Assembly: GCA_902779125.1 (NCBI GenBank)
Contig: CACZAC010000022.1
Span: 1-44,256, forward strand
Reading direction: 5' to 3'
From: an uncultured Bacteroidales bacterium
GTDB lineage: Bacteria; Bacteroidota; Bacteroidia; Bacteroidales; Muribaculaceae
Length of the DNA: 44,256 nucleotides
Position numbers and translations under genes: made by a program
Part shown: piece by piece, positions 13,646 to 39,584 of the stretch
Layout of the letters: each line of letters starts with the position of its first letter
Position numbering within the stretch: the stretch's first letter is position 1
The notes under the pieces: generated by a model
What the model was told of the DNA's origin: nothing
Seen by the model: the letters and a program-made list of their open reading frames with translations, nothing else
The model's database searches: none

Positions 13646-13653
13646 TATCTTTG
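13646..13653 (+). promoter_or_regulatory. -7 element ahead of cobalamin riboswitch 1
   Basis: TATCTTTG fits TAnnTTTG and lies immediately before the riboswitch aptamer. No good -33 TTTG is seen at the expected distance. Confidence 0.55.
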
Positions 13654-13654
13654 C

Positions 13655-13860
13655 GGCGAGATTTGGTGCCTGGGGTTACGGCTCCGGGTGAAAAGGGAAC
13701 CGGGTGTGAATCCCGGACAGACGGCGCTGCTGTGTGCCCCTGGTGAGATTCCCGCAGTGGACCACTGCGTGGCGTCCCTGTAGCAAGGGACGACGTGGGA
13801 AGGGACAGTGCAAGAAAGGGAAGGGGCGAGTCAGAAGACCTGCCAAATCGTGGACATAGA
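13655..13860 (+). promoter_or_regulatory. Cobalamin riboswitch 1 (approximate limits)
   Basis: The leader holds the conserved cobalamin aptamer pieces in order: AAAAGGGAACCGGGTGTGAA followed by TCCCGG (P3/P4 region), GCTGCTGT, and the 3' core box GTCAGAAGACCTGCC at about 13830–13844. The start codon of the TonB receptor is 28 bases after the box. In Bacteroidetes this class lowers translation or transcription of uptake genes when B12 is plentiful. No terminator hairpin with a T-run is visible between the aptamer and the ATG, so control of translation initiation is more likely. Confidence 0.92.
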
Positions 13861-13871
13861 AACCCGGAATA

Positions 13872-15956
13872 ATGCGTAAAACGTTAGTTATAGCACTTTT
13901 TGTCTTTGTGTGTTTCCTGTGCACTCGTGCCCAGGAAGGCGTTCTTGCGCACCAGGCCGACTCGGTTATGGCTGCTGTGGGTATCGGTCGTCTGGATTCG
14001 ATGCATTATATCCAAAATGTCATCGTCTATGGACGCCGCCCCTATGAAGACGTCATTCCTGCCCAGGAACTCACGGGTAAGCAACTTGAGGGTCTCAACA
14101 GCCATTCTGTGGCCGATGCCGTGCGCTACTTTGCCGGCGTCCAGCTCAAGGATTACGGCGGTGTGGGAGGACTCAAGACGGTTGACATCCGCTCGATGGG
14201 AACCAATCACATGGGTGTTTTCTATGACGGCATCCAGATTGGCAACGCCCAGAACGGCCAGGTGGACTTGGGAAAATTTTCACTCGACAATATTGAGGCG
14301 ATTTCACTTTACAACGGTCAGCGAAGTAACATTTTCCAGAGCGCCAAGGACTATGGCTCGGCAGGCACTATCTACTTGCGCACCCGCCGTCCCAAGTTCA
14401 AGGATGGCAAGCGTGACAACGTGAATGTGTCGTTCAAGACGGGCTCCTTCGGGCTCGTGAATCCCAGTGTGCGTTGGGAGCATAAATTGAGTCGCTCGGT
14501 GAGCCTGTCGTTCAACAGCGAGTTCACCTACGCTACGGGTAAGTATCGTTTCCGTTACCGCAAGCACTACAGCGACGGCACCCTGGCGTGGGACACCACT
14601 GCAGTAAGGCAGAACGGTGACGTGCGTTCCTATCGTGTCGAGGGCGCTGTCTTCGGCGTGATGCCCAGTGGCAAATGGCACGCCAAGGCCTATTTCTACG
14701 ACAGCAGTAAGGGCATCCCCGGTGCCATCGTCAATAATGTGTGGAAGCATGCCCAGAAGCAGTGGGACCGCAACTTCTTCCTGCAAGGAGCCTACCAGCG
14801 CAAGTTCAGCGACCGCTACGAGATGATGTTCAACGCCAAGTATTCGCGTGACTATCTGCACTATCTCAACCCCGACACCACGTTGATGTATATCGACAAC
14901 AAGTTCTGGCAGGACGAGATTTACCTTTCTACAGCCAACAAATACACCATCCTCACCGATTGGGACGTCAACCTGTCGGTGGACTATCAGTGGAACAGCC
15001 TTGACGCGACGTTGACAGGCTTCGGCTATCCCGTGCGCCACACGGTGCTCACCGCACTGGCGACCGCATGGAGCTGGCGCGGTTTCAAGGTGCAGGGTAG
15101 TCTGCTCTACACGATGGTCAACGACCGTTCTTCGGCACGGTTCAACGGACAGGTCGTGGGCAAGATGAGCAGGTATGCCAACAAGGTCACGCCTGCTGTT
15201 TTCCTCAGCTGGCAGCCGTGGCAGGAGCGGGATTTTAACCTTCGCGCCTATTACAAGCGCATCTTCCGTCTGCCAACGTTCAATGACCTCTACTATACCG
15301 ACATGGGCAACATCACGCTCAATCCCGAGTATGCCACCCAGTACAACGTGGGATTCCTCTACCGCCTACTTGCCGACCGGGGGCTGTTGGAGGGCATCAA
15401 GTTGAGCGCCGATGCCTATTACAACTACATTACCGACAAAATCATCGCCGTGCCCAAGGGCACAGGACAGTACCGATGGATGATGATGAACGTGGGCATC
15501 GTGAAAATCCTTGGCATCGACGTGAGCGCACGAACCACTTTGCGCTTGCCTGCCGACGTAATTCTGGACATCAACCTGAGCTATACCTACCAGAAGGCTC
15601 AGGACTATACCAATCCCGCCGACAACGAGGATGGTGGTACGTACAAGGGGCAGTTGGCTTACATTCCATGGCACAGTGGTTCAGTTGTCGGTCACCTGAA
15701 CTGGCGTGACCTGGACGTGAACTACAGCTTCATCTATGTCGGTGAGCGCTACCACACCAGTGCCAATACCCGCGAGAACCACGAGCAGCCCTGGTACACT
15801 CACGACCTGTCGGCAGGATATCTGTTCCACTTGGGAAAAACCACGTTAAAAGTCTCGGGCGAGGTCAATAACCTCTTCAACCAGTACTATGACGTCATCC
15901 TCAACTATCCCATGCCGGGACGCAATTACAAACTCATCCTCAAATTCGACATCTGA
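13872..15956 (+). CDS. btuB: TonB-dependent outer-membrane cobalamin receptor, BtuB-like
   Basis: This is a TonB-dependent receptor for import of cobalamin (or a related corrinoid) across the outer membrane. The 694-residue protein has a signal peptide (cleavage after about residue 20), a TonB-box-like stretch near IQNVIVYGRR, a plug domain at about residues 60–165 (VADAVRYFAGVQLKDYGG, then RSMGTNHMGVFYDGI), and a beta-barrel ending in the aromatic-rich KLILKFDI. It lacks the N-terminal carboxypeptidase-like domain of SusC glycan receptors, which fits a vitamin transporter. The substrate call rests mainly on the cobalamin riboswitch directly upstream and on the BtuG-like gene whose ATG overlaps its stop codon (TGATG). 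Confidence 0.9.
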   Translation: MRKTLVIALFVFVCFLCTRAQEGVLAHQADSVMAAVGIGRLDSMHYIQNVIVYGRRPYEDVIPAQELTGKQLEGLNSHSVADAVRYFAGVQLKDYGGVGGLKTVDIRSMGTNHMGVFYDGIQIGNAQNGQVDLGKFSLDNIEAISLYNGQRSNIFQSAKDYGSAGTIYLRTRRPKFKDGKRDNVNVSFKTGSFGLVNPSVRWEHKLSRSVSLSFNSEFTYATGKYRFRYRKHYSDGTLAWDTTAVRQNGDVRSYRVEGAVFGVMPSGKWHAKAYFYDSSKGIPGAIVNNVWKHAQKQWDRNFFLQGAYQRKFSDRYEMMFNAKYSRDYLHYLNPDTTLMYIDNKFWQDEIYLSTANKYTILTDWDVNLSVDYQWNSLDATLTGFGYPVRHTVLTALATAWSWRGFKVQGSLLYTMVNDRSSARFNGQVVGKMSRYANKVTPAVFLSWQPWQERDFNLRAYYKRIFRLPTFNDLYYTDMGNITLNPEYATQYNVGFLYRLLADRGLLEGIKLSADAYYNYITDKIIAVPKGTGQYRWMMMNVGIVKILGIDVSARTTLRLPADVILDINLSYTYQKAQDYTNPADNEDGGTYKGQLAYIPWHSGSVVGHLNWRDLDVNYSFIYVGERYHTSANTRENHEQPWYTHDLSAGYLFHLGKTTLKVSGEVNNLFNQYYDVILNYPMPGRNYKLILKFDI

Positions 15957-17146
15957 TGATTAATATCCTAAATATGACAAAATGGGACAAAGGGACGGTT
16001 CTTTTGTCCCAGGTTCTTTTGGTGCTGTTGTTATTGCTGGTGACATCGTGCCGTGAAGAGGAAACCATCTTCCTGCCTGAGCATGTGTCGGTGGCTCAGC
16101 CTGAATTTACCGACATCGAGGGTTTCTACCTGCTGTGCGAGGGCAACATGGGCTGGAACAAGGCGACGCTCGACTACTATGACTACGCCTATGGCGAATA
16201 CCTGCGCAATATCTTCTCCTACGCCAATCCCAATGTGCCTAAGGAGATGGGTGATGTGGGTAATGACCTCGGTATCTATGGCAGCAATCTGTTTTGTGTC
16301 ATCAACTGTTCCAACAAGGTGGATGTGCTTGACAAATACACCTGCAAGAAGAAATATCAGATTGACATTCCCAACTGCCGCTTCATCCGCTTCTACGGCG
16401 GCTATGCCTATGTGACCAGTTATGCCGGACCGGTGCAGATTAACCCTAACTACGAACAGCGCGGTTATGTCGCCAAGATAGACACCGTCACGATGCAGAT
16501 TGTCGATACCTGTCTCGTCGGCTTCCAACCCGATGAATTGGAGATTGTCGAGGGCAAGATTTATGTCGCCAATTCGGGCGGCTACATGGTGCCTAACTAC
16601 GAGAACACCCTATCGGTCATCGATGTGGCGACTTTCAAGGAAGAACGCCGCATCCCTATTGCCATCAACCTGTCGTGGGTCAAGGGTGACCGCCATGGCA
16701 TGCTGTGGGTGGCGTCTCGTGGCGACTATTACACCACACCGAGCAAGATTTATGCCTATGACACACGCAAACAGCAACTTGTCGATAGCATCGATTGCCG
16801 TGTGAGCAACATGTGGCTCGACGGCGACTCGCTCTATGTCGTCAGCACCGAGTGGAGTTATGTGTCGATGAGCAACAAGTTCAATTATGCTATCGTGGAC
16901 ACCCGTCAACGCAGGGTGGTGAGCGACAATTTCATCACCGATGGTACCGACAAGGAAATTGTCATCCCCTATGCAGTTGCTGTCAATCCGATAACCAAGG
17001 ACATCTATGTCACCGATGCCAAGGATTACGTATCACCGGGACGCCTCTTCTGTTTCGATCGTTATGGCGTGAAAAAATGGGATGTGCGAACTGGCGACAT
17101 TCCTGCCCACTTTGCCTTCTTGGGCAACAATATCAATGAGAAATAA
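15956..17146 (+). CDS. btuG: BtuG-like beta-propeller surface lipoprotein (DUF5074/YncE-like)
   Basis: BtuG proteins are surface lipoproteins that bind cobalamin very tightly and cap BtuB in gut Bacteroides. The 396-residue product has a type II signal peptide with lipobox LVTSC; the lipidated residue would be C32, followed by REEE, an acidic stretch like Bacteroidetes surface-export signals. The body consists of YncE-type propeller blades (GNDLGIYGSNLFCVINCSNK, VEGKIYVANSGG, YAVAVNPITKDIYVTDA). The ATG overlaps the stop of the TonB receptor, so the two are translationally coupled. The exact name btuG is by context and fold. A related propeller is fused into the protein at 35682–38252. Confidence 0.82.
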   Translation: MINILNMTKWDKGTVLLSQVLLVLLLLLVTSCREEETIFLPEHVSVAQPEFTDIEGFYLLCEGNMGWNKATLDYYDYAYGEYLRNIFSYANPNVPKEMGDVGNDLGIYGSNLFCVINCSNKVDVLDKYTCKKKYQIDIPNCRFIRFYGGYAYVTSYAGPVQINPNYEQRGYVAKIDTVTMQIVDTCLVGFQPDELEIVEGKIYVANSGGYMVPNYENTLSVIDVATFKEERRIPIAINLSWVKGDRHGMLWVASRGDYYTTPSKIYAYDTRKQQLVDSIDCRVSNMWLDGDSLYVVSTEWSYVSMSNKFNYAIVDTRQRRVVSDNFITDGTDKEIVIPYAVAVNPITKDIYVTDAKDYVSPGRLFCFDRYGVKKWDVRTGDIPAHFAFLGNNINEK

Positions 17147-17175: not shown

Positions 17176-18393
17176 ATGGATATGAGAACTACAAAGAATT
17201 TAACAGCCCTTGTGCTGCTGCTGATGACCGCATTAACCATGTGGGGCAACCACCCGTGGCTGACGCGCGTGTATGAGTATCGCCCGGCTCCAGGACAGTT
17301 TGTCAACACCTTGCCTGTTGCAAGGGTGGGGGAGCCGGTGGACAGTGTGCTGTCACGCTGCAACTATAGTGTATGTGGACGCATTGACACCGTGACCCAG
17401 ACGTTCCATGGCCAGACTATCACCAGCATCGACACGGTGTGGGCGGGTAGCATGGTGACTTTGGGCGGCTATGGCGGCTATATCGTCATGGGTTTTGACC
17501 ATCCCGTGGTGAATATGCACACCTGGGACTTTGACATTCTGGGCAATGCCTTCTACAGCGACCAGATGGTATCGGGTGGCAGTTGTGAGCCTGGCATCGT
17601 CATGGTGGGCGTGGATGCCGATGGTGACGGCGTCCCCAGCGATGGCGACCGTTGGTATGAACTCGCTGGCAGTGACTATGACCATCCCAAGACGCAGCAC
17701 GATTATGCCATCACCTATTACCGTCCCGACGAGGGCAAACCGCGCACGCCCAGCATGACTGACCCCTTTCTGGTGGACACTACTTACATCCGCTGGACCA
17801 GCAATGATGTCAACCCCGACAGCACCAGCGGTTACATGAGCCGCAACAGTTTCCACTATCAGCCTTACTGGCCCCTGTGGCTGCAAGGTGAGGAGACGAT
17901 GACGTTCACGGGTGCCAAGTTGCGCAACAATGCGGTAGATATCGGCGGCAATGACGGCAACGCCTACTTTGTGCAGTACAACTTCTCGTGGGGCTATGTT
18001 GACAACCTGCCCAACCATTCTACTCGCCAACCCGGCGTTGAGGGCTTCAACCCTGGCTTCAAGATTGACTGGGCGGTCGATGAACAGGGACGTCACGTCA
18101 ACCTGACCCATATCGACTTTATCAAGGTTTATAATGCCGTCAACCAGTATTGTGGTTGGATTGGCGAGACTTCCACCGAGGTGGCAGGCGGTGTTGACTT
18201 TCATCCTGATGCACCGATGCCCGAGTCTCTGCCTGGCGATGTCAATGGTGACGGTGAGGTCACTGTAAGCGATGTCAATGCCATCATTCATGCAATCGTG
18301 ACGGGCATGGTTCAACCGAGTGCCGATGTCAACCACGACAGCGAAATTACGGTTGGCGATGTCAACACCGTAATCGGCTATATCTTGAAGTGA
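17176..18393 (+). CDS. Secreted cobalamin-operon 'PAPGQFVN' protein with C-terminal dockerin-like pair
   Basis: Third gene of the riboswitch operon, 29 bases after the propeller gene; 405 residues. A signal peptide (about residues 1–23, no lipobox Cys) is followed by a domain of about 320 residues starting PWLTRVYEYRPAPGQFVN. Its hallmarks are GGYGGYIVMGFDHPV, GGSCEPGIVMVGVD and the Asp-rich DADGDGVPSDGDRWYEL, and it ends with HIDFIKVYNAVNQYCGW. Residues about 362–405 are two calcium-loop repeats (GDVNGDGEVTVSDVNAII and ADVNHDSEITVGDVNTVI) of the type I dockerin kind. Its operon and its homology to the N-terminal half of the protein at 35682 argue for a part in surface cobalamin capture. The biochemical role is unknown; cobalamin binding is inference. 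A terminator follows. Confidence 0.8.
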   Translation: MDMRTTKNLTALVLLLMTALTMWGNHPWLTRVYEYRPAPGQFVNTLPVARVGEPVDSVLSRCNYSVCGRIDTVTQTFHGQTITSIDTVWAGSMVTLGGYGGYIVMGFDHPVVNMHTWDFDILGNAFYSDQMVSGGSCEPGIVMVGVDADGDGVPSDGDRWYELAGSDYDHPKTQHDYAITYYRPDEGKPRTPSMTDPFLVDTTYIRWTSNDVNPDSTSGYMSRNSFHYQPYWPLWLQGEETMTFTGAKLRNNAVDIGGNDGNAYFVQYNFSWGYVDNLPNHSTRQPGVEGFNPGFKIDWAVDEQGRHVNLTHIDFIKVYNAVNQYCGWIGETSTEVAGGVDFHPDAPMPESLPGDVNGDGEVTVSDVNAIIHAIVTGMVQPSADVNHDSEITVGDVNTVIGYILK

Positions 18394-25854: not shown

Positions 25855-27438
25855 ATGATCAACAGTATTAGATTCTTTTTAACCGCATTGCTTGCGTTGG
25901 TTTTAAGTTCATTGGCGGCTCATGCCGGTAATTTGACCGTGTTTGACGGTAGCCAGGTTTCGGTCTATGTGCCACTTCCCACAGCCGAGTATAACGAGCC
26001 GGGTACACGTGGACAAGTCATTTATCCTGCCGAGTACCTTACCTCGATGGTGGGACAGCCCATCAACGGTATCACCCTCTATATCAACGATGAGGGCTGC
26101 AAGATGAATGGTGGCGCCATGCGCGTGTCGATGGGTGAGGTGGCCGACACCACAGTGTTCACCAGTACTACCTATTTCACTGGACTGACTCAGGTCGCCC
26201 TTGTCGAAATGACAGCTGGTTTAGTGGAACTGGATATCGATTTTGACACCCCTTATATCTATAATGGTGGCAATCTGGTCATCGATTTCTATGTACAGGT
26301 GGCCGGTGAGTCGGGAGCTTACAATTTCACTTATTTCTATGGTTTGTATCAAACGGGCCACACGGCATTGTCAGGCGGTGAATATCGCGAATTCCTGCCC
26401 AAAACCACTTTTTACTATGGGGAACCGCTTGCTTACTCGGCTAAGGTCAGCCCCCGTTTCGTGACTTTCTCGACGATGCGTGCGGGTGAAAGAGAGGAAA
26501 GGACCGTTACACTCAAGAATAACGGCATGAATCCCTTTGAGCCGGTTGTCAGTGCCGGGAATCCGTTCAGCGCGTCTCTGCCCGCGGGGCTTGTGATGCA
26601 ACCTGGAACTTCTCAGGAAATCACCGTTGCATTCGAGCCCGTGGTGGCTGGCGATTTTGAGGGAGCGCTCACAATCGATTGTGGCGAGGCTGGTGTGCTC
26701 CAGGTGCCTCTGGCTGGTACTGCCCTCGAGAAGGGTCTGGAATTGACAGTGTGTGACGGCGATGCCTCCAATCAGTATGTTCCGTTTAATGGCATTTATG
26801 CCGATGATGTGAACACTATAGGTCAGATGATCTATCCTGCCGAGAAACTCATGCAGATGAAAGGCGGCAAAATTGTTGCCCTCTCATTCTACACCACTTC
26901 AGATATCAATATGAAGAATGTGGCGCTTGAACTCTCGATGCTCAATACCGACCAGGAAGGTTTTGGCCAGGCTGTGCCCATGACTGGATTGACAACCGTG
27001 GCAACTGCCGATGTCGTTAAGGGTGAAACGGTGATTACGTTCGAGTTTGATACCCCCTTTGAATACACTGGCGGCAACTTGGCTATTGAGGCCAAAGTGG
27101 CAACTGCCGGATGGACTGCAACCACGATATTCTGTGGAGAGGCAACCGACAATTATGCCAGCTTGTCGTGCTTCAAGAGCTGGAGCGGTGACAAGAAGGA
27201 ACGCTATCAGTTCCTGCCCAAGGCCACCTTTGTCTATCAGGAGAATGCTGGACCTGCTGTCATGCAAGGTGACGTGGATGGCAATGGTGAGGTAGGCATC
27301 GCCGACGTGACCGCTCTGATTGACGTGTTGCTCGGTGGTGAAGATGCTCCTGCTGCTGCCGACTGCAACAACGACAACGAGGTAGGCATCGCCGACGTGA
27401 CCGTTCTGATTGACTTCCTGCTCAGCGGCCAGTGGTAA
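25855..27438 (+). CDS. Array protein 2: module–anchor D–module–dockerin
   Basis: The 527-residue protein has the same architecture as its left neighbour. The signal peptide differs (MINSIRFFLTALLALVLSS, ending AHA). Module 1 has LTVFDG, QVIYPAEYLTSMVG, YIYNGGNLVID and FLPKTTFYY. The anchor D-like domain is at about 200–298 (KVSPRFVTFSTM, LTIDCGEAGVLQVPLAG). Module 2 has LTVCDG, QMIYPAEKLMQMKG, FEYTGGNLAIE and FLPKATFVY. The dockerin pair at the C-terminus is almost the same in DNA as that of array gene 1, while the modules are more diverged. This pattern suggests gene conversion or recombination at the tag. The function is unknown. Confidence 0.8.
   Translation: MINSIRFFLTALLALVLSSLAAHAGNLTVFDGSQVSVYVPLPTAEYNEPGTRGQVIYPAEYLTSMVGQPINGITLYINDEGCKMNGGAMRVSMGEVADTTVFTSTTYFTGLTQVALVEMTAGLVELDIDFDTPYIYNGGNLVIDFYVQVAGESGAYNFTYFYGLYQTGHTALSGGEYREFLPKTTFYYGEPLAYSAKVSPRFVTFSTMRAGEREERTVTLKNNGMNPFEPVVSAGNPFSASLPAGLVMQPGTSQEITVAFEPVVAGDFEGALTIDCGEAGVLQVPLAGTALEKGLELTVCDGDASNQYVPFNGIYADDVNTIGQMIYPAEKLMQMKGGKIVALSFYTTSDINMKNVALELSMLNTDQEGFGQAVPMTGLTTVATADVVKGETVITFEFDTPFEYTGGNLAIEAKVATAGWTATTIFCGEATDNYASLSCFKSWSGDKKERYQFLPKATFVYQENAGPAVMQGDVDGNGEVGIADVTALIDVLLGGEDAPAAADCNNDNEVGIADVTVLIDFLLSGQW
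27268..27438 (+). repeat. Dockerin-coding DNA repeat, copy 2
   Basis: Partner of 25500–25670, with the same length, same frame and same stop codon context (CAGTGGTAA). Confidence 0.85.
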
Positions 27439-28695: not shown

Positions 28696-30303
28696 ATGAA
28701 AAAAAGTTTTAAACTCTTGTTCGCTGCACTGATGTCGATGGCCGCTTTCGTGCCCGCTCAGGCTGACAATCTGACCGTTTATGACGGCGCGGATTACAAC
28801 AACTATGTGCCTTTCTACGGTGGCTACTTTGACACCCAGAACATGGCTTCTCAGATGATCTACCGTGCTGGTGATCTCCAGGTTATGCAGGGCGCTCTGA
28901 TCAGTTCGTTGAAGTTCTACGTCTTTTATCCTGAGACCGGTAACCCCCTTAACGGTGGTAAACTGGGCGTTTCGATTGGTGTGACCGATTTGGATCAGTT
29001 CTCGGGATACAGTCCCAGTTTGATCACAGGCCTGACTCAGGTAGCCGAGATCACAATGAATCCTGGCGATACCGAAATCGTTGTCAATTTCGATACACCA
29101 TTTGCTTACACTGGCGGCAATCTCGTGATTGCAACCAACGTGAATGAATCTGCCGGTTATTACGAAGATTTCTATTTCTCTGGTAAGAACGTCGATTACT
29201 ATGCTTCGATGTATAGGCTGCCTGCCAGTGGTAGCTCTTATGCCCAGAGTTTTGGTCCCAAGACCACCTTTGAGTATACCTTGGCCGATGACTATGCTGC
29301 CGTAAGCACCAATGCTATTGATTTCGGCAAGCTCTATCCCGAGCAGGTGGCAACCCGTACTTTCACCGTCGCCAATTATGGTAAGAACGCCTTCACTCCC
29401 GTCTTCAGCACCCTCAATGCTCCCTTCAGCATTGCTCCTGCTGCAGCCGAGATCGCTGCTGGTGAGTCGGTAGAGTACACCGTGACCTTTGCTCCTACCG
29501 AGGAAAATGAGTATGCTCAGACCTTGACCATCGATTGTGGCAATGCCGGACAGTTCGAGATTGCTCTGAGTGGTATCTTGGCTCCTATCCCTGATGAGAT
29601 TCCCATTTGTGACGGTGACGCCACTGATCAGAATCTGCCCTTCTATGGCTACTACTATGATTGCAAGACCAAGGGCCAGATGATCTACACTGCCGATATG
29701 CTCTCTGCTGTCGCTGGCAAGAAGATTACTTCTGTTACCTTCTATCCCACCGAGGCCTTGACCCTCAAGGGTGGTAAGCTCCAGTTGGCGCTCAAGGCTG
29801 TCGATCAGGATGGTTTCAGCACCTACACTGCATTGACCGACTTCACCACGGTAGCTACTGTTGCTCCCGCCCAGGGCGACGAAGTTCTTGTCTTCACCTT
29901 GGATGAGCCTTATGAGTACACTGGTGGCAATCTCGCAATCGAGGTAACTGCCATTGAGAGTGGTAGCAACTATCCCAGGACTTATTTCTACGGCCAGGAG
30001 TTTGCTGACTATTATCCCAGCCTGTATCTCTATGGTACCTCGAGCTATTCTTCAAGCGACAAGTCTCACTTCTTGCCCAAGCTCGGTATCAAGTATGTGA
30101 AGGAAGACACTCCCGCTGATTATGACATGGGTGACGTGAACCATGATGGTAATGTGTCGATTCCCGACGTGACCGAACTCATCGATTACCTGATTAATGA
30201 CGCAACTGCAGCTCCCGCCGAGGCTAATGTGAATGGTGACGAGGTCGTTTCCATTGCCGACGTGACCGCTCTGATTGACTACCTGCTCAGTGGCGCATGG
30301 TAA
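28696..30303 (+). CDS. Array protein 4: module–anchor D–module–dockerin
   Basis: The 535-residue protein has a signal peptide (MKKSFKLLFAALMSMAAF, ending AQA) nearly the same as array protein 1. Module 1 is diverged in its YPAE motif (QMIYRAGDLQVMQG) but keeps FAYTGGNLVIA and FGPKTTFEY. The anchor D-like domain is at about 200–298 (TNAIDFGKLYPEQVATRTFT, LTIDCGNAGQFEIALSG). Module 2 has IPICDG, QMIYTADMLSAVAG, YEYTGGNLAIE and FLPKLGIKY. The C-terminal pair is GDVNHDGNVSIPDVTELIDY and ANVNGDEVVSIADVTALIDY. The function is unknown. It has its own promoter and a strong terminator. Confidence 0.8.
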   Translation: MKKSFKLLFAALMSMAAFVPAQADNLTVYDGADYNNYVPFYGGYFDTQNMASQMIYRAGDLQVMQGALISSLKFYVFYPETGNPLNGGKLGVSIGVTDLDQFSGYSPSLITGLTQVAEITMNPGDTEIVVNFDTPFAYTGGNLVIATNVNESAGYYEDFYFSGKNVDYYASMYRLPASGSSYAQSFGPKTTFEYTLADDYAAVSTNAIDFGKLYPEQVATRTFTVANYGKNAFTPVFSTLNAPFSIAPAAAEIAAGESVEYTVTFAPTEENEYAQTLTIDCGNAGQFEIALSGILAPIPDEIPICDGDATDQNLPFYGYYYDCKTKGQMIYTADMLSAVAGKKITSVTFYPTEALTLKGGKLQLALKAVDQDGFSTYTALTDFTTVATVAPAQGDEVLVFTLDEPYEYTGGNLAIEVTAIESGSNYPRTYFYGQEFADYYPSLYLYGTSSYSSSDKSHFLPKLGIKYVKEDTPADYDMGDVNHDGNVSIPDVTELIDYLINDATAAPAEANVNGDEVVSIADVTALIDYLLSGAW

Positions 30304-30525: not shown

Positions 30526-31929
30526 ATGAAGAAAAGTTTTAAACTCTTGTCTGCAGCGCTCATCGCGCTGATTTCGTTTGCGCCCAGTGCTAATGCTGGC
30601 GAATTGGTCGTTTGTGATGGAGATGATAATAGCTCCTACTTCCCTGTATATGGGTTCTATTATGATCAGCAGTTCCACGACCAGATGATTTATCCTGTTA
30701 ACATGCTCTACGACATGGTTGGCAAGAACATCACCTCTATAACCTTCCATCCCAATTCGACTCTTGAATATCAGGGTGGTAAATTGCGCCTGTCATTAAA
30801 GGAATCTGAAATGGACCGTTTCGGCAGCTATGATTTGCAGACAGATTGCCGTATTGTCGCTGATCTCGTCCCCACTGTTGGTGACAACGAACTCGTTTTC
30901 GTTTTCGATCGACCTTATTATTATGATGGCGGTAACCTGCTGATTGACTGCGAGTTGATAGAGCCAGGTAGGAACTATCCCTCAATAACCTACCAGGGCA
31001 AGTCGATGGGCTATGTATGCAGCCTCTTCCACTATGGCTACAATAGTCAAAGTGATGTTGACTACTTCCTGCCCAAGGTTACTTTCACTTACGAAGACGG
31101 TAGCACCCCCACCCCCGTTGAGATGGTTTACACCGTTGTAGGTCCCGAGGACGTATTTGGCACCAATTGGGATATCAATGACCCCAACAACGAATTGGTT
31201 AAGGGTGAGGACGGCGTTTACACCTGGAGCAAGGAGAATGTAGCCCTGTATGGTAACTTCGAGTTCAAGGTTGTCGGCAACCACAGCTATGATATCTATG
31301 AGTGGCCCGTCGGCATGAACAACTGGGTTGCTAATGTTGCTGAGGAAGGCATCTACACCATCGAAATCACCTTCAATCCCGAGGCTGCCGAAGAAGACCG
31401 CATCGGCTGCACGCTGACCAAGACCGGTGATGTTGAGCACATTGAGCACGTTTACACCGTTGCTGGTACCGATAACCTGTTCGGCAGCTATTGGGACACC
31501 AATGACGAGGCCAACAACATGGTTAAGGGCGATGACGGCATCTACACTTGGAGCAAGAACGGTGTTGAGTTTGCTGCTGAGGAAGTAGTTGAGTTCAAGG
31601 TTGTTCAAGACCACGCTTGGACCTATGCATGGCCCTCCAACAACTGGTGGTACAAGGCAGAAGAGGCTGGCAAGTATAATGTTGTCATCACCTTCGACGC
31701 TGATACCAAGGAGATCACCTTCACTGCTAACCTCGTAACTGAACCCGGTTTTGAGCCTGGTGACGTGAACCAGGATGGTGATATTTCGATTGTTGATATT
31801 ACCATGTTGATCGACTTCCTGGTGGCTGACCCAAGCGCTGCCCCCGCCGAGGCTGACGTCAATGGTGATAACACCGTTTCAATTAGTGACGTTACTGACC
31901 TGATCGACTTGTTGCTGAGTGACAATTGA
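30526..31929 (+). CDS. Array protein 5: module, two X25/SusE-like domains, dockerin
   Basis: The 467-residue protein begins at ATG 30526, which gives the family signal peptide (MKKSFKLLSAALIALISF, ending NA). One module follows at about 25–190 (LVVCDG, QMIYPVNMLYDMVG, YYYDGGNLLID, FLPKVTFTY). In place of the anchor D domain are two tandem repeats at about 200–305 and 310–410, starting VYTVVGPEDVFGTNWDIND and VYTVAGTDNLFGSYWDTND. Each has a GVYTWSK- or GIYTWSK-type turn, an FKVV strand and a Trp-rich loop. These resemble the starch-binding SusE/SusF C-terminal domain and the pullulanase X25 module, so glucan binding is plausible but unproven. The dockerin-like pair is GDVNQDGDISIVDITMLIDF and ADVNGDNTVSISDVTDLIDL. 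It is the last member of the array. Confidence 0.78.
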   Translation: MKKSFKLLSAALIALISFAPSANAGELVVCDGDDNSSYFPVYGFYYDQQFHDQMIYPVNMLYDMVGKNITSITFHPNSTLEYQGGKLRLSLKESEMDRFGSYDLQTDCRIVADLVPTVGDNELVFVFDRPYYYDGGNLLIDCELIEPGRNYPSITYQGKSMGYVCSLFHYGYNSQSDVDYFLPKVTFTYEDGSTPTPVEMVYTVVGPEDVFGTNWDINDPNNELVKGEDGVYTWSKENVALYGNFEFKVVGNHSYDIYEWPVGMNNWVANVAEEGIYTIEITFNPEAAEEDRIGCTLTKTGDVEHIEHVYTVAGTDNLFGSYWDTNDEANNMVKGDDGIYTWSKNGVEFAAEEVVEFKVVQDHAWTYAWPSNNWWYKAEEAGKYNVVITFDADTKEITFTANLVTEPGFEPGDVNQDGDISIVDITMLIDFLVADPSAAPAEADVNGDNTVSISDVTDLIDLLLSDN

Positions 31930-35276: not shown

Positions 35277-35308
35277 TTTGTTAGTTTCAAGGGAATGATG
35301 TATCTTTG
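35277..35308 (+). promoter_or_regulatory. Promoter for the second cobalamin unit
   Basis: TTTG at 35277–35280, a 20-base spacer and TATCTTTG at 35301–35308 followed by CA; the riboswitch aptamer begins within about 25 bases. The bases between nrdG and this promoter show no gene. Confidence 0.85.
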
Positions 35309-35324
35309 CACTAACAAATTGAAC

Positions 35325-35560
35325 GTGTTGAGGTTTCCAGCCTGAAAATGGTGAGGAATCAAAAGGGAACCAGGTGCAACTCCTGGACAGTACCCGCTGC
35401 TGTAACTCCCCACGTCACATCGAGCGGCATCATGCCACTGGTTGCAAACGCTACAATGTCTGCATCATCACCGGGAAGGCGCCGACATCGATGGGGGAGA
35501 AGTCAGAAGACCTGCCTCCACACGGCCATTGATTGTGGTTCACGCGGCATTTGAACCCTG
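35325..35560 (+). promoter_or_regulatory. Cobalamin riboswitch 2 (approximate limits)
   Basis: The conserved pieces appear in the usual order: AAAAGGGAACCAGGTGCAAC with TCCTGG, then CCGCTGCTGTAA, and the 3' core box GTCAGAAGACCTGCC at about 35502–35516. Compared with riboswitch 1, the region between GCTGCTGT and the box is somewhat longer. The regulated start codon is at 35682, so about 165 bases of expression platform follow the box. No T-rich terminator hairpin was seen in them. Confidence 0.92.
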
Positions 35561-35681
35561 GCGAAGTGAGATGATGCAGAGTGCAATCTGCCCATTTTCT
35601 TGAAGTCTTCACTGGCTACTGCCGGCTTCCGACGTGTCGCTTGATTCACAATATGAAGTGAAACAAGAAACTAATGATGAC

Positions 35682-38252
35682 ATGAAGAAAAAGTTGCTCT
35701 TTTCATTGATGGCTGTGACGGCGATGGCGGCTTCTGCCGGCAATTCGCCCTATATAGCCCGTGTGTATGATTACCTGCCTGCTCCGGGCCAGTTCGTGAA
35801 TCAGTCGCCCGCCTACAAGCCGGGATACACTCAGGACAGCATCAATGCCATCGTCGAAGCATCGCTGTGCGGAAAAGCGACCGGTGGCCCTGTCAGCTTG
35901 GGCAGCTATGGCGGCTATATCGTCTTCGGCTTCGACCATCCCGTTATCAACAAGCACGGCTATGACGTGAAGATTTATGGTAACGCCATGCAGAGCGCTG
36001 CAGTGCCCGATATGGCGGGTGGCAGTTGCGAACCCGGCATCATCATGGTGGGCGTGGACATGGACGGTAATGGGATGCCCAGCGACGGCGACAAGTGGTA
36101 TGAAATCAAGGGAGCAGACTATGACCGTTGCCAGCATGGCTTCGAGGTAACCTATTACAAACCCGACGAGAACAAACCTCGTGTGCCTCATGCAAGCTGG
36201 AAATTCATCAACGATATCGAGTATGTCCATTGGACGAGCAACGACGCCGATGCTTCCAGCGGCTATGTGTGGCGTAACACGTTCCACAGCCAGCCTTATT
36301 GGCCGCTGTGGACCGAGGACACGGTGCTTACCTTCCGAGGCACACGTCTGCCCAATTCTTCTATTGATATGAGTGGAGGCAGCGGTAACAACTGGTTCCA
36401 GCCGTTCTTTGGCGAAGGCTATGTGGACAACTTGCCCAACGGGCAGGAACCTGGTTTCATGATTGACTGGGCAATTGACGAGAATGGCAATCCTGTCCCC
36501 CTCGACCACATCGACTTTATCAAGGTCTATTGTGCTCAACTTGACTATTGCGGTTGGCTTGGTGAAGTATCTACCGAGGTGTGCGGTGCTGAGGATTTGC
36601 ACCCCGATGCCGAAGCCGATGAACCCGGTCCTGGTCCCGGTGATTATACGTTCACCAACGGCATCATCTTCGTCAACGAGGACCGTTATGGACCCAACCA
36701 GGGCTCACTCAACTATTACAACTACGACTACGACGAGATGGAATACAATGTTTATGCCATCGTCAATCCTGATACGAAGCTCGGTATGACAACCCAGTTT
36801 GGCCAGCTCTATGGCAATCATCTGTTCCTCGTCAGCAAGCAGGCAAACACCAGTGAGGCGTCGGGCAACACCATGGGCTCCCGTCTTGCAGTGCTTGATG
36901 CAGCAACGCTCAAGCAGCAAGGTAGCCTCCTGCGATTCGGCGAGTCACCTGACAGCATCTATGATGGTCGCGCCTATTGCGCTGTCACAGCCGAGAAAGG
37001 CTATATTTCGACCAGTGCGGGCATCTTCGTCTTTGATGTTCCCTCGATGAGCGTGACGGGCGCTATCGACGGCACATTGTCCAGCGCTAAGGGGGATTAC
37101 AACAGTCTCTATAAAGACCAGTGCGGTGATATGGTGCGCTTTGGGCAGTATGTGTTTGCCGTGCAGCAGGGCAGGGGACTGCATGTGATTGACCCCGCCA
37201 GTGATGCCATCGTGACCACATTGCCGTTCCCCAACATTGTTACCGTGTTTGTTACGGCAGGCGGTAACTTGTATGTGGCGAACAATTCCCGTGAAATCTA
37301 TGACTATAGCGGCGGCCCCTATGAGGCTAACTTCACCCGTATCGATCCTGTCACACTGAGCGTTGCCGAGGTATATCCATTAGACGGTACCCGTGGCGCG
37401 ATGAGCTCGTGGGGGGCTTGGCGGCCTTGCATGGTCTGTGTTGACCGCCAGGCCGAACGTGTCTATTACAACTATGACGAGTATCAGAACTACATCAGCA
37501 GTTATGACTTCACGACGCGCATGTTTACTGATGAACTCATCACTCTGCCTGAGGGCGTTGAAATCAACTGGGACGGCACGAAGGAACGTCAGGGGCTCTA
37601 TGCCTCAGCCATCAGCTTTGACCCCCACACGGGTGATATGGTGGTACAGACGACCGAAGCTGCCCCCCTGTCCTATCAGAACTTTAACCACAACTGGGTG
37701 CTCTTCTATGATGCCAACACGCTGGAACTCAAGAAGCAGGTGCGTCTGCAGGATGCCTATTGGTTCCCGTCGATGGCGGTCTATCCTGACGTCTGCAATC
37801 CCACGGTGGTCATGACAGACAGGCAACTGCCTGAAGGCGAGTCCCAGGAGATTGACCTGTTGCACGCCGTCAATGACGCCGACAACATGGCTGCTCTAGC
37901 TGTGACCACAGCAAAAAGTGCCAATCCGCAGGTCGCTCGCGCATGGGTGAGTGGTACTAGCCTTCATGTCGAAGCGGTAGCCCCAGGCAGGACGACAGTT
38001 ACGGTCACTACCGACAGCAACGGCAAACTGACAACAGCTTCGTTTACGGTAACTGTGTCAAAGGTGTCTGCCCCAGGTGATGTTAACATGGACGGAAGTG
38101 TCAACATTGCGGATGTTGCCAAACTCATAGACATCTTGCTGGGCTCAGTATTGGCTGACTATGACCCGAAAGCTGCTGATGTGGATTGTGACGGCGTGAT
38201 AGGTATTGGCGACGTGGCTGCGCTCATCGACCGCTTAATGATTGATGATTGA
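35682..38252 (+). CDS. Fused PAPGQFVN–propeller–Ig–dockerin protein under riboswitch control
   Basis: The 856-residue secreted protein begins at ATG 35682, which gives a signal peptide (MKKKLLFSLMAVTAMAASAG); an in-frame GTG 48 bases upstream has no export signal at its start and is rejected. Residues about 22–320 match the protein at 17176 (YLPAPGQFVN, GSYGGYIVFGFDHPV, GGSCEPGIIMVGVD, PSDGDKWYEI). Residues about 335–740 are a DUF5074/YncE-like propeller (GIIFVNEDRYGPNQGSLNYY, LYVANNSREIYDYSGGPY) related to the lipoprotein at 15956. A small bacterial Ig-like domain (about 745–810) and a dockerin-like pair (GDVNMDGSVNIADVAKLIDI and ADVDCDGVIGIGDVAALIDR) finish the protein. It thus joins in one chain two partners of the first cobalamin operon. 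It has no lipobox, so the dockerin may take over anchoring. Confidence 0.85.
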   Translation: MKKKLLFSLMAVTAMAASAGNSPYIARVYDYLPAPGQFVNQSPAYKPGYTQDSINAIVEASLCGKATGGPVSLGSYGGYIVFGFDHPVINKHGYDVKIYGNAMQSAAVPDMAGGSCEPGIIMVGVDMDGNGMPSDGDKWYEIKGADYDRCQHGFEVTYYKPDENKPRVPHASWKFINDIEYVHWTSNDADASSGYVWRNTFHSQPYWPLWTEDTVLTFRGTRLPNSSIDMSGGSGNNWFQPFFGEGYVDNLPNGQEPGFMIDWAIDENGNPVPLDHIDFIKVYCAQLDYCGWLGEVSTEVCGAEDLHPDAEADEPGPGPGDYTFTNGIIFVNEDRYGPNQGSLNYYNYDYDEMEYNVYAIVNPDTKLGMTTQFGQLYGNHLFLVSKQANTSEASGNTMGSRLAVLDAATLKQQGSLLRFGESPDSIYDGRAYCAVTAEKGYISTSAGIFVFDVPSMSVTGAIDGTLSSAKGDYNSLYKDQCGDMVRFGQYVFAVQQGRGLHVIDPASDAIVTTLPFPNIVTVFVTAGGNLYVANNSREIYDYSGGPYEANFTRIDPVTLSVAEVYPLDGTRGAMSSWGAWRPCMVCVDRQAERVYYNYDEYQNYISSYDFTTRMFTDELITLPEGVEINWDGTKERQGLYASAISFDPHTGDMVVQTTEAAPLSYQNFNHNWVLFYDANTLELKKQVRLQDAYWFPSMAVYPDVCNPTVVMTDRQLPEGESQEIDLLHAVNDADNMAALAVTTAKSANPQVARAWVSGTSLHVEAVAPGRTTVTVTTDSNGKLTTASFTVTVSKVSAPGDVNMDGSVNIADVAKLIDILLGSVLADYDPKAADVDCDGVIGIGDVAALIDRLMIDD

Positions 38253-38306: not shown

Positions 38307-39584
38307 ATGAAGAAATTATTTACTTTAGCAGTTAGTGCCTTGATGGCTTCCGCCGCATGGGCTGGTGTGATTACACTCGATTTGAACAAGCCATTGAATC
38401 CCTCTACGTTGGAATACAATGACTACGGTATCTGGACTGGGTGCTATAACGATGTTGACTATACATGGTTGGAGTTCGGCGATGAGAATGGTGAGTTTCT
38501 TCTCTCACACCTCATTGACGGCGAGGGGGCCTCGTGGGGTGGCTACTATTGGGACGGATTCTGCCCCGCTATCGGTGGAGATCAGACCGACTATGGTCAA
38601 CCCGGTAGCAGTGGCTCTTGGACCACCTATTTTGGCGGTTGCATGGCTGGTGGTGGCTGTGTCATCAACGATGGCTCGGTGACTGCTGATCCCAGTCAGC
38701 CCTATTTTGTAGCTTATTACAGCAATTGGGCAGTTGAAGGCCCCAGCAACCAGGTGATGTTTGTTGACAAGGACGGTAACACGACCTTTGAGCCTGTAGG
38801 TGTTTACGTTTGCAACCATCCTTGGCCCTATTACGGTTGTGAGCATGGCGACGGTTTTGGCTCCCCCTTTGCCGAGGGTGACTATTTCCAGCTCATAGCC
38901 CATGGCGTTGCTGCTGATGGCTCGGAAACTACCACTAGCATCAATCTCGTTGAATTCACCAATGGACAGCTCCACGCCCTCAACGATTGGACATTCTTTG
39001 ACCTCTCTAGTCTGGGCGAGGTGGAGTCAGTTTACTTTACCATGACTTCGACCGATTCGGGTGACTATGGCATGAATACTGCTGCCTACTTCTGCATGGA
39101 CAAGTTCCAAGTGAAGGGAGAGGGTGGTGACACTCCCGGCCCAGAGCCTTATACTCCCGTTGCTCCCAAGCTTAACACGACAGTCGAAGATAATTACGTT
39201 GTTGTTGAGGGTGTCATCGAGGGCGAAGTAGCTGAGCATGGAACCGTGGTTCTCTATCTGGTTGATGAGAATGGTGGTCGTGCGCTTATTGAGATTGCCA
39301 ACCCCACGAACTTTGAACGCAAGGCTGAGGATTACCAAGTGGCGATCGTTGCCGAGGCCATCTATGATAACGGCGAGATCATCACCAACGAGCCCCAACT
39401 GGTAGACGTTCCCAAGAAGGTTACACCTTCCACCAGCATCAGCGAGATGATGAGTGGCAAGGCTGTTGCTAGCATTCGTTACTATAACATGGCTGGTCAG
39501 GAGATGCAGTCGGTCAACGGCATGACGATCGTAGTCATCACCTACGCCGATGGCACCACCAGCACAGCTAAGGTAGTTAAATAA
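38307..39584 (+). CDS. DUF4465-type secreted protein with C-terminal tag (second gene of the riboswitch unit)
   Basis: It starts 54 bases after the fused protein with no promoter or terminator seen between, so it is probably under the same riboswitch. The product has 425 residues with a signal peptide ending AWA. Residues about 20–270 match the DUF4465 pattern as I know it (YWDGFCPAIGGDQTDY, VGVYVCNHPWPYYGC, EGDYFQLIAHGVAADGSETT, WTFFDLSSLGEVESVYFTM, GMNTAAYFCMDKFQVKG). DUF4465 genes are found in Bacteroidetes cobalamin loci; a link to the B12-binding BtuH class is possible but I could not verify it. A Pro-rich linker, a small beta domain (LYLVDENGGRALIEI) and the tag IRYYNMAGQEMQ…KVVK follow, the same tag as at 18614 and 20457. 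Confidence 0.8.
   Translation: MKKLFTLAVSALMASAAWAGVITLDLNKPLNPSTLEYNDYGIWTGCYNDVDYTWLEFGDENGEFLLSHLIDGEGASWGGYYWDGFCPAIGGDQTDYGQPGSSGSWTTYFGGCMAGGGCVINDGSVTADPSQPYFVAYYSNWAVEGPSNQVMFVDKDGNTTFEPVGVYVCNHPWPYYGCEHGDGFGSPFAEGDYFQLIAHGVAADGSETTTSINLVEFTNGQLHALNDWTFFDLSSLGEVESVYFTMTSTDSGDYGMNTAAYFCMDKFQVKGEGGDTPGPEPYTPVAPKLNTTVEDNYVVVEGVIEGEVAEHGTVVLYLVDENGGRALIEIANPTNFERKAEDYQVAIVAEAIYDNGEIITNEPQLVDVPKKVTPSTSISEMMSGKAVASIRYYNMAGQEMQSVNGMTIVVITYADGTTSTAKVVK
39474..39584 (+). repeat. C-terminal-tag DNA repeat, copy 3 of 3
   Basis: The last 111 bases match 20123–20233 and 21468–21578 in length, frame and most of the sequence, despite lying about 18 kb away. Confidence 0.8.

What the first reader, a model, noticed from the sequence alone, without database searches (positions are those of the whole stretch)
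35325..38252. Second riboswitch drives a fusion of two proteins encoded separately in the first B12 operon
The 856-residue protein joins a PAPGQFVN domain like gene 3 of the first operon to a propeller like gene 2 of that operon, in one chain under its own cobalamin riboswitch. Such a fusion strongly suggests that the two separate proteins act together, for example as a complex that holds B12 before transfer to BtuB. Lacking a lipobox and a TonB partner, it may be an outlying or released capture protein fixed by its dockerin.
Basis: partly seen in the sequence, partly recalled or inferred. Interest (0 to 1): 0.78.

Follow-up and report, generated by a model that had tools for sequence, protein, structure and literature searches.

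The report
Two vitamin-B12 catchers fused together
A Bacteroidales bacterium, probably from a ruminant gut, joins two known kinds of vitamin-B12-catching protein into one secreted protein under a B12-sensing RNA; it is a new arrangement of known parts, and close relatives still make the two halves as separate neighbouring genes.

Summary
A cobalamin riboswitch (Rfam, 101 bits) precedes an 856-residue protein made of a BtuH-type domain, a DUF5074 beta-propeller, an Ig-like stretch and a C-terminal dockerin. A DUF4465 (BtuJ-type) gene lies 54 bases downstream. The N-half is a paralogue of gene 17176 (49% identity). The propeller shares only its Pfam family with gene 15956 (BtuG). Its nearest solved relative, by sequence and by fold, is BtuK1, so the fusion is BtuH+BtuK rather than gene 3 + gene 2. 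Of 37 related loci, 23 carry this fusion and 14 have H and K separate, 13 of them abutting in the order H-K. All 23 fused copies share one junction length, yet trees reject a single fused clade. Five of the eight BtuH2 residues that touch B12 are invariant in the 24 fused copies. Best explanation: a starvation-induced, non-lipidated two-site B12 capture protein that loads BtuG-BtuB, encoded elsewhere, in trans. A propeller-BtuH fusion in the other order (BtuGH) is already published. The dockerin could be an anchor: cohesin-like modules exist in this genome on proteins with a secretion-type tail. B12 binding, anchoring and outer-membrane crossing are not shown.

The parts
35278..35308 (+). promoter-like element TTG-N20-TAnnTTTG directly before the riboswitch
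   Evidence: pattern recalled from Bacteroides promoters; no chance control was run; a match to the pattern was found in the searched 900 bases upstream of the first cassette gene in 34 of 37 related loci, not always at this distance
35314..35533 (+). cobalamin riboswitch aptamer (RF00174), 101.2 bits
35682..38252 (+). BtuH-BtuK-type fusion gene, 856 aa (GTG at 35634 gives 872 aa)
35682..35741 (+). signal-peptide-like N terminus without lipobox cysteine (by eye)
   Evidence: sequence; in split relatives the downstream propeller gene has a signal-peptide-like start of its own
35742..36611 (+). BtuH-type domain
   Evidence: (8blw E 8e-57, 7biz E 3e-36)
36612..36641 (+). Pro/Gly-rich linker; junction length identical in 23 of 23 fused loci
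36642..37793 (+). DUF5074 beta-propeller, BtuK type
   Evidence: (PF16819 E 1.8e-73), (9s6c 'B12 Binding protein - BtuK1', E 1.2e-17)
37794..38072 (+). Ig-like (Big_2-like, below Pfam cut-off) spacer
   Evidence: E 0.014
38073..38237 (+). C-terminal type I dockerin
38307..39584 (+). DUF4465 (BtuJ-type) protein with a C-terminal tail that recurs in the genome and looks T9SS-like; second gene of the unit
   Evidence: (E 6e-34); not recognised as a T9SS tail by NCBIfam
13647..13861 (+). first cobalamin riboswitch
13872..15956 (+). BtuB-like TonB-dependent receptor, presumed recipient in trans
   Evidence: PF07715; TIGR01779 E 1.6e-31, under that model's cut-off
15956..17146 (+). BtuG-type propeller protein, lipobox by eye
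   Evidence: (8ptd/8ptf E 2e-37)
17176..18393 (+). stand-alone BtuH-type protein with C-terminal dockerin

Best explanation
The gene encodes a secreted, non-lipidated, two-site cobamide capture protein: a BtuH-type domain joined in-frame to a BtuK-type propeller. It is probably co-transcribed with a BtuJ-type (DUF4465) binder from a cobalamin-riboswitch leader, so it is made when B12 is scarce. Each half is expected to bind one corrinoid. The captured vitamin is expected to pass to the BtuG lid on BtuB, encoded in the first operon. The fusion came from two adjacent genes (H then K) by loss of the first gene's dockerin and stop and of the second gene's signal peptide. The C-terminal dockerin most likely holds the protein at the surface, perhaps through cohesin-like proteins with a T9SS-like tail. 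Shown: riboswitch, domain content, split and fused forms in one riboswitch/DUF4465 setting, conservation of most contact residues of the H half, purifying selection on both halves. Inferred: co-transcription, B12 binding of both halves, hand-off to BtuG-BtuB, anchoring.
For: H half: best solved relatives are the BtuH domain of BtuGH (8blw) and BtuH2 (7biz). The BtuH2 contacts named in PMC8941943 are kept in the 24 fused rows as follows: Gln333, Asn399, Trp511, Trp577, Leu578 24 of 24; His476 21; Phe401 7; Tyr510 0. BtuGH lacks Tyr510 and Phe401 too, and its H part was reported to bind cobalamin on its own (PMC12751083, section 6). K half: 9s6c is the only entry matched through its propeller with a significant stretch (whole-sequence E 2.7e-6, best stretch 1e-4), and it is the top fold hit, titled BtuK1; BtuK1 binds cobalamin (PMC12751083). 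A DUF4465 gene follows in 35 of 37 loci; B12 binding is reported for members across that family (PMC13398666). Rfam finds the riboswitch before the cassette in 15 of the 15 cassette loci examined (4, 11), and a riboswitch-box pattern occurs in 37 of 37 (no chance control). Median dN/dS is 0.064 for H and 0.058 for K against 0.18 for the spacer. Fused and split forms both occur between nrdD and the gene called topA here.
Against: Two of the eight BtuH2 contact positions are mostly changed, and 3 of 24 fused rows have Arg for His476. BtuK2, close in sequence to BtuK1, did not bind cobalamin (PMC12751083), so kinship alone does not prove binding by K. The whole-chain model is of medium quality (pLDDT 73, pTM 0.59), so the mutual placing of H and K is unknown. 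By fold, BtuG is nearly as close as BtuK1 (TMt up to 0.80 against 0.80-0.81). dS to most relatives is above 1, near saturation, so dN/dS values are rough. How a dockerin-tailed protein without lipobox or recognised sorting domain crosses the outer membrane is not explained.
Confidence: 0.72

Rival explanations
1. One reading: the fusion mirrors genes 15956 (BtuG) and 17176 (BtuH-type) of the first operon, and those two act as a complex.
For: Both propellers are PF16819; BtuG structures match the fused propeller by fold almost as well as BtuK1; B. theta has a real G-H fusion, BtuGH (PMC10404256, PMC12751083).
Against: The fused propeller aligns with the 15956 product over only 95 residues at 27%. 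The nearest entry by sequence and fold is BtuK1. In another genus of the family btuG, H and K are three consecutive separate genes (L038-L040), so K and G are distinct there. BtuH2 and BtuG2 were not robustly co-precipitated (PMC8941943, passages).
Confidence: 0.12
2. Only the BtuH half binds B12; the propeller has drifted and serves as a spacer or protein-binding platform.
For: BtuK2, a relative of BtuK1, did not bind cobalamin (PMC12751083). Identity of the K half with BtuK1 is low (18-19% in the fold alignments).
Against: The K half is as strongly constrained as H (median dN/dS 0.058 against 0.064) and stays beside a DUF4465 gene in 35 of 37 loci.
Confidence: 0.2
3. The fused protein is released from the cell as a soluble B12 trap rather than anchored.
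For: No lipobox by eye. BtuH2 of B. theta is found partly in the supernatant (PMC8941943, passages). Only three borderline Pfam cohesins in the genome.
Against: A profile from this genome finds 11 cohesin-like modules, its own sources included. Of the orthologues read in other genera, several end in T9SS-like tails and others have lipobox-like starts, that is, other means of surface attachment for the same proteins.
Confidence: 0.25
4. The fusion is a frameshift or assembly artefact of one genome.
For: None beyond the absence of the fusion in many relatives.
Against: 23 of 37 loci from separate assemblies carry it with an identical junction length and a diverged linker sequence; dS of the H and K halves to the window is above 1 in every measurable locus except L069.
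Confidence: 0.01

Closest known systems
BtuGH (BtuG1, BT_1490) of Bacteroides thetaiotaomicron, PDB 8blw
   Same: Natural fusion of a B12-binding beta-propeller with a BtuH domain in a riboswitch-regulated B12 locus; two binding sites in one chain.
   Different: Order is propeller then H; the propeller is BtuG and sits as a lid on BtuB1; lipoprotein. Here H comes first, the propeller is BtuK-type, there is no lipobox, the C terminus is a dockerin, and no btuB is next to it.
BtuH2 (BT_1956), PDB 7biz
   Same: Same type of B12-binding domain with most contact residues kept.
   Different: PKD domains and a lipid anchor in place of propeller and dockerin.
BtuK1 (BT_1486), PDB 9s6c
   Same: Closest solved relative of the propeller half by sequence and fold; encoded with btuH1, btuB1, btuGH and btuJ1 in B. 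theta operon 1.
   Different: Separate lipoprotein; low sequence identity.
BtuJ / DUF4465 family (PDB 9fct, 9i2l)
   Same: The next gene encodes a DUF4465 protein, as BtuJ1 does in B. theta operon 1.
   Different: Here it carries a T9SS-like tail (by eye) instead of a lipobox.

Membership tests
BtuH domain family | Homology over the whole C-terminal B12-binding domain of BtuH2 | tested here: met
   E 3.2e-36 to 7biz over query residues 34-322 and E 7.6e-57 to the BtuGH H domain
BtuH domain family | Hydrogen-bonding/polar B12 contacts Gln333, Asn399, His476, Tyr510, Trp511, Trp577 of BtuH2 | tested here: inconclusive
   Five of these six kept in the window (Tyr510 is Asn); across 24 fused rows 24, 24, 21, 0, 24, 24. 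BtuGH, a binder, also lacks Tyr510
BtuH domain family | Cobalamin binding | not testable with these tools
   needs protein
BtuK | DUF5074-type propeller nearer BtuK1 than BtuG | tested here: met
   9s6c first among propellers by phmmer and by Foldseek, E 1.2e-17 against 2.1e-15 for the best stand-alone BtuG; the fold margin is small and no tree with named BtuK and BtuG sequences was made
BtuK | Lipoprotein | tested here: not met
   no lipobox by eye in the fusion, nor in the 11 split K genes whose starts were printed (10, L083); no signal-peptide program was run
BtuGH | BtuG-type propeller N-terminal, H C-terminal, encoded with btuB | tested here: not met
   reverse order, other propeller type, no btuB match in the held flanks of 37 loci
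Cobalamin riboswitch-controlled gene | RF00174 aptamer over gathering score directly upstream | tested here: met
   101.2 bits against 31.5
Cellulosome-type dockerin-cohesin attachment | Cohesin partner in the same genome | tested here: inconclusive
   3 Pfam cohesins over the cut-off in the genome search (24.7-27.4 bits, cut-off 24.1), but 23.6 and 22.9 bits, and none in the third, when the proteins were scanned; 11 cohesin-like modules with a home-made profile, four of them its own sources; no binding shown

The most novel reading that the evidence does not exclude
In this genus the type I dockerin has taken over the job that lipid anchors and T9SS sorting tails do for the same B12 proteins elsewhere. 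Dockerin-tailed capture proteins such as H-K would reach and stay on the surface by binding cohesin-like carriers that themselves bear a T9SS-like tail, possibly crossing the outer membrane together with them. That would be a cohesin-dockerin surface-display system for vitamin capture in Bacteroidota, outside polysaccharide breakdown.
Probability: 0.15. Interest if true: 0.8.

Novelty: new variant of a known kind. Interest (0 to 1): 0.46.

Why it matters
[quoted passage not shown] Here the same H and K proteins occur fused and unfused in one genomic setting, a ready pair for testing whether H and K hand B12 to each other. The same proteins also occur with three kinds of likely attachment (lipobox, T9SS-like tail, dockerin), which makes the role of the many dockerins of this genus testable with a ligand assay.

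Tried and rejected
Naming 9s6c from sequence alone failed: the 65-residue fragment found one 42% relative among 393 genomes of the order, and two paper searches gave no name; the fold-search title named it BtuK1. A single origin of the fusion as one clade was tested and rejected on quick trees (p-AU 0.002 for K with 24 fused and 12 split rows, 0.003 for H+K with 24 and 10). The K tree needs 4 changes and its starred branches force 2; the H tree forces only 1. Recombination between fused and split copies, a return to the split form, or a second fusion remain possible. The idea that 945-aa and similar frames were further fusions was dropped: searches show separate genes in the loci read; the lengths were of open frames from stop to stop. 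T9SS-type tails on the window proteins were not recognised by NCBIfam at E up to 10 and are called T9SS-like by eye; one K protein of another genus reaches 22.5 of 23 bits for TIGR04183, and one (G126) has no such tail. Nine loci of other genera were searched with Rfam: 7 have a cobalamin riboswitch, L046 (a short contig) and L051 have none over the gathering score.

Rows dropped: L083 from the K tree (no start motif); L076, L078, L083 and L088 from the H rows (motif not found or no H gene recognised by the pattern). L072, cut by its contig end, from dN/dS; saturated dS values left out of the medians. One search labelled L058 split because its H motif differs; one search shows one frame with both motifs, so it is counted as fused.
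Full report
What is there. A cobalamin riboswitch aptamer lies at 35314-35533 (RF00174, 101.2 bits), with a promoter-like element just before it (35278-35308; the pattern is recalled). The next gene starts at ATG 35682 (856 aa; a GTG at 35634 would give 872) and ends at 38252. It has a signal-peptide-like start without a lipobox (by eye), a BtuH-type domain, a DUF5074 propeller (PF16819, E 1.8e-73), a weak Ig-like stretch and a C-terminal dockerin (E 1e-7).

Which families. The N-half is 49% identical to the product of 17176-18393 and matches the H domain of BtuGH (8blw, E 8e-57) and BtuH2 (7biz, E 3e-36). The 15956 product is a BtuG: best chains 8ptd and 8ptf, E 2e-37. The fused propeller aligns with it over only 95 residues at 27%. 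By sequence its best entry is 9s6c (E 2.7e-6; best single stretch 1e-4). By fold its best match is again 9s6c, titled B12 binding protein BtuK1 (E 1.2e-17, TM 0.80 on the target), followed by BtuG structures (best stand-alone E 2e-15). BtuGH and BtuH2 structures appear at ranks 4 and 12, over 296 and 312 columns at 38 and 36% identity, presumably through the H half; ranges are not given. The fold model is middling (pLDDT 73, pTM 0.59, 49-row alignment), and fold alone separates BtuK1 from BtuG weakly.

Relatives. In 198 genomes of the family, 159 have some match to the protein at E 1e-20. Among the matches listed only two (G000 and G187) span both halves in one row; at most four candidates per genome were scored and the weakest matches are not listed, so this is a lower bound. 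In G164, G180 and G193, same genus, the halves are two adjacent genes, each with its own signal-peptide-like start and dockerin-like end (sequences; Pfam run for two of the three), after a riboswitch and before a DUF4465 gene. A scan of genome contigs gave 37 loci, by their titles uncultured Prevotellaceae, Muribaculaceae, Porphyromonadaceae or Bacteroidales assemblies, several named after goat, water buffalo, sheep or roe deer. Of these, 23 are fused and 14 split. L088 is one of the split ones and has K before H. In the other 13 split loci the gap from the H stop to the K start runs from -11 to 14 bases. The distance across the junction is 22 residues in 23 of 23 fused loci while its sequence varies. 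A DUF4465 gene starts shortly after K in 35 of 37; the exceptions are L072, cut by its contig end, and L088. nrdD (named) lies upstream in 28 and a gene taken by eye for topA downstream in 26 of 37, in fused and split loci alike; contig ends and the 6-kb flank limit these counts. No btuB or btuG match was found in the held sequence of any of the 37. Rfam finds the riboswitch upstream of the cassette in 4 of 4 same-genus loci and in 11 of 11; these 15 are the cassette loci of this scan that were examined with Rfam, the four being counted by matching contig lengths. A box pattern occurs in 37 of 37 (no chance control). Of nine loci from other genera, 7 have a riboswitch and 2 (L046, L051) none over the gathering score; in several of these it lies before btuB, with btuG, H and K behind.

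History. K and H trees mix fused and split forms: K needs 4 changes and its starred branches force 2, H forces 1 (quick trees). With H and K together, a single fused clade is rejected (p-AU 0.003; 24 fused rows including the window, 10 split). The split loci L077, L082 and L086 sit in one group with the fused L063 and L084 (SH-aLRT 99-100). The shared junction length argues for one fusion event, so recombination between fused and split copies is the simplest reading, but this is inference. dN/dS against the window is low in both halves (medians 0.064 for H, n 21, and 0.058 for K, n 22, of 22 loci) and higher in the spacer (0.18, n 18) and the dockerin (0.13, n 6); most dS values exceed 1, so these are rough.

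Binding residues. PMC8941943 (passages read) names eight residues of BtuH2 that touch B12. In the 24 fused H domains Gln333, Asn399, Trp511, Trp577 and Leu578 are invariant, His476 is kept in 21, Phe401 in 7 and Tyr510 in none. BtuGH lacks the last two as well, yet its two domains each bind cobalamin (PMC12751083, section 6 read). For K, BtuK1 binds cobalamin but its close relative BtuK2 does not (same section), so binding by this K is likely and unproven; no K contact residues could be checked. The DUF4465 protein has Asn-Thr-Ala-Ala-Tyr-Phe where PMC13398666 (sections 15-17 read) describes a conserved HI loop of the type Gly-Thr-Pro-Ala-Tyr-Phe with the B12-binding tyrosine.

Attachment. In B. 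theta the BtuH, BtuK and BtuJ proteins are described as lipoproteins (PMC12751083 sections 5-6 and passages; PMC8941943 passages). Here the H, H-K and DUF4465 proteins of the window have no lipobox by eye. The H and H-K proteins end in a dockerin; the DUF4465 protein ends in a tail of which a six-sequence profile finds 30 copies in the genome and which looks like a T9SS sorting tail. Of the H and K proteins read from other genera, several end in T9SS-like tails, some H proteins have a lipobox-like start, and one K (G126) has neither. All 7 dockerin hits of the window lie within five residues of the protein's end. The genome has 148 dockerin hits at E 0.001 (150 of 235 candidates scored). T9SS sortase is present in 98 of 99, with two copies here. 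Pfam finds three borderline cohesins, in proteins with leucine-rich repeats, Ig-like domains, an internal dockerin and the same recurrent tail; scanned as proteins, two fall just under the cut-off and the third shows none. A profile built from two of them finds 11 modules, four of them its own sources. So dockerin anchoring is possible, and the route across the outer membrane is open.

Known or new. BtuGH (passages of PMC10404256; sections of PMC12751083) is a published propeller-BtuH fusion, and PMC8941943 (passages) notes beta-propellers among the domains attached to BtuH homologues. New here, as far as I could see, are the order, the BtuK-type propeller, the dockerin end, and the coexistence of fused and split forms in one genomic setting. 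Searches for this arrangement in print were and 91 of the held library, which lacks most subscription journals and holds no preprints; in the listings and passages seen, no paper describes it. PMC6118326 (passages) describes bacteria with many dockerins and few cohesins where a cohesin may anchor isolated proteins, a possible parallel. PMC6071333 (passages) reports dockerins in rumen Bacteroidetes, so their presence is not new. PMC5831590 (passage) reports none in another rumen Bacteroidetes lineage.

Noticed in passing
G000 whole genome; window 18232-18387, 21720-21869, 25497-25655, 27268-27423, 30130-30288, 31756-31914, 38073-38237: 148 type I dockerin hits in one Bacteroidales genome, an expansion seen in the six sampled genomes of the genus and in one genome of another genus (30 hits), but hardly in the other 92 family genomes.
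   Followed up: partly
L091 125-7402 (-), L092 442-3552 (-): Three BspA-like proteins with paired cohesin-like modules around an internal dockerin and a T9SS-like tail: candidate receptors for the dockerins.
   Followed up: partly
L090 4112-7615 and 9073-12525: Two T9SS sortase homologues close together; the five other sampled genomes of the genus carry three to six, several in tandem. Some other genera also have four or five, so a link with the dockerins is only a guess.
   Followed up: no
L050 4759-14961: The genome's third cobalamin riboswitch leads a stretch with two TonB-dependent receptors and anaerobic cobalamin synthesis genes (CbiK-, CbiH-CbiC-, CbiE-CbiT- and CbiG-CbiF-like; CbiH, CbiE, CbiT and CbiF over their cut-offs), so this organism may both make and scavenge corrinoids.
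   Followed up: partly
L041 10685-14236, L043 160-4263: In other genera the same B12 operons end with very large proteins (1183 and 1367 aa), each with a further BtuH-like motif by eye.
   Followed up: no
L048 8748-8940: In G062 a second cobalamin riboswitch stands directly before the stand-alone K gene, behind a btuB-btuG-H run with its own riboswitch.
   Followed up: no
window 13861-13872: In the first operon the aptamer ends only about 10 bases before the btuB start codon, against about 150 bases before the fusion gene; the two leaders may act by different means.
   Followed up: no
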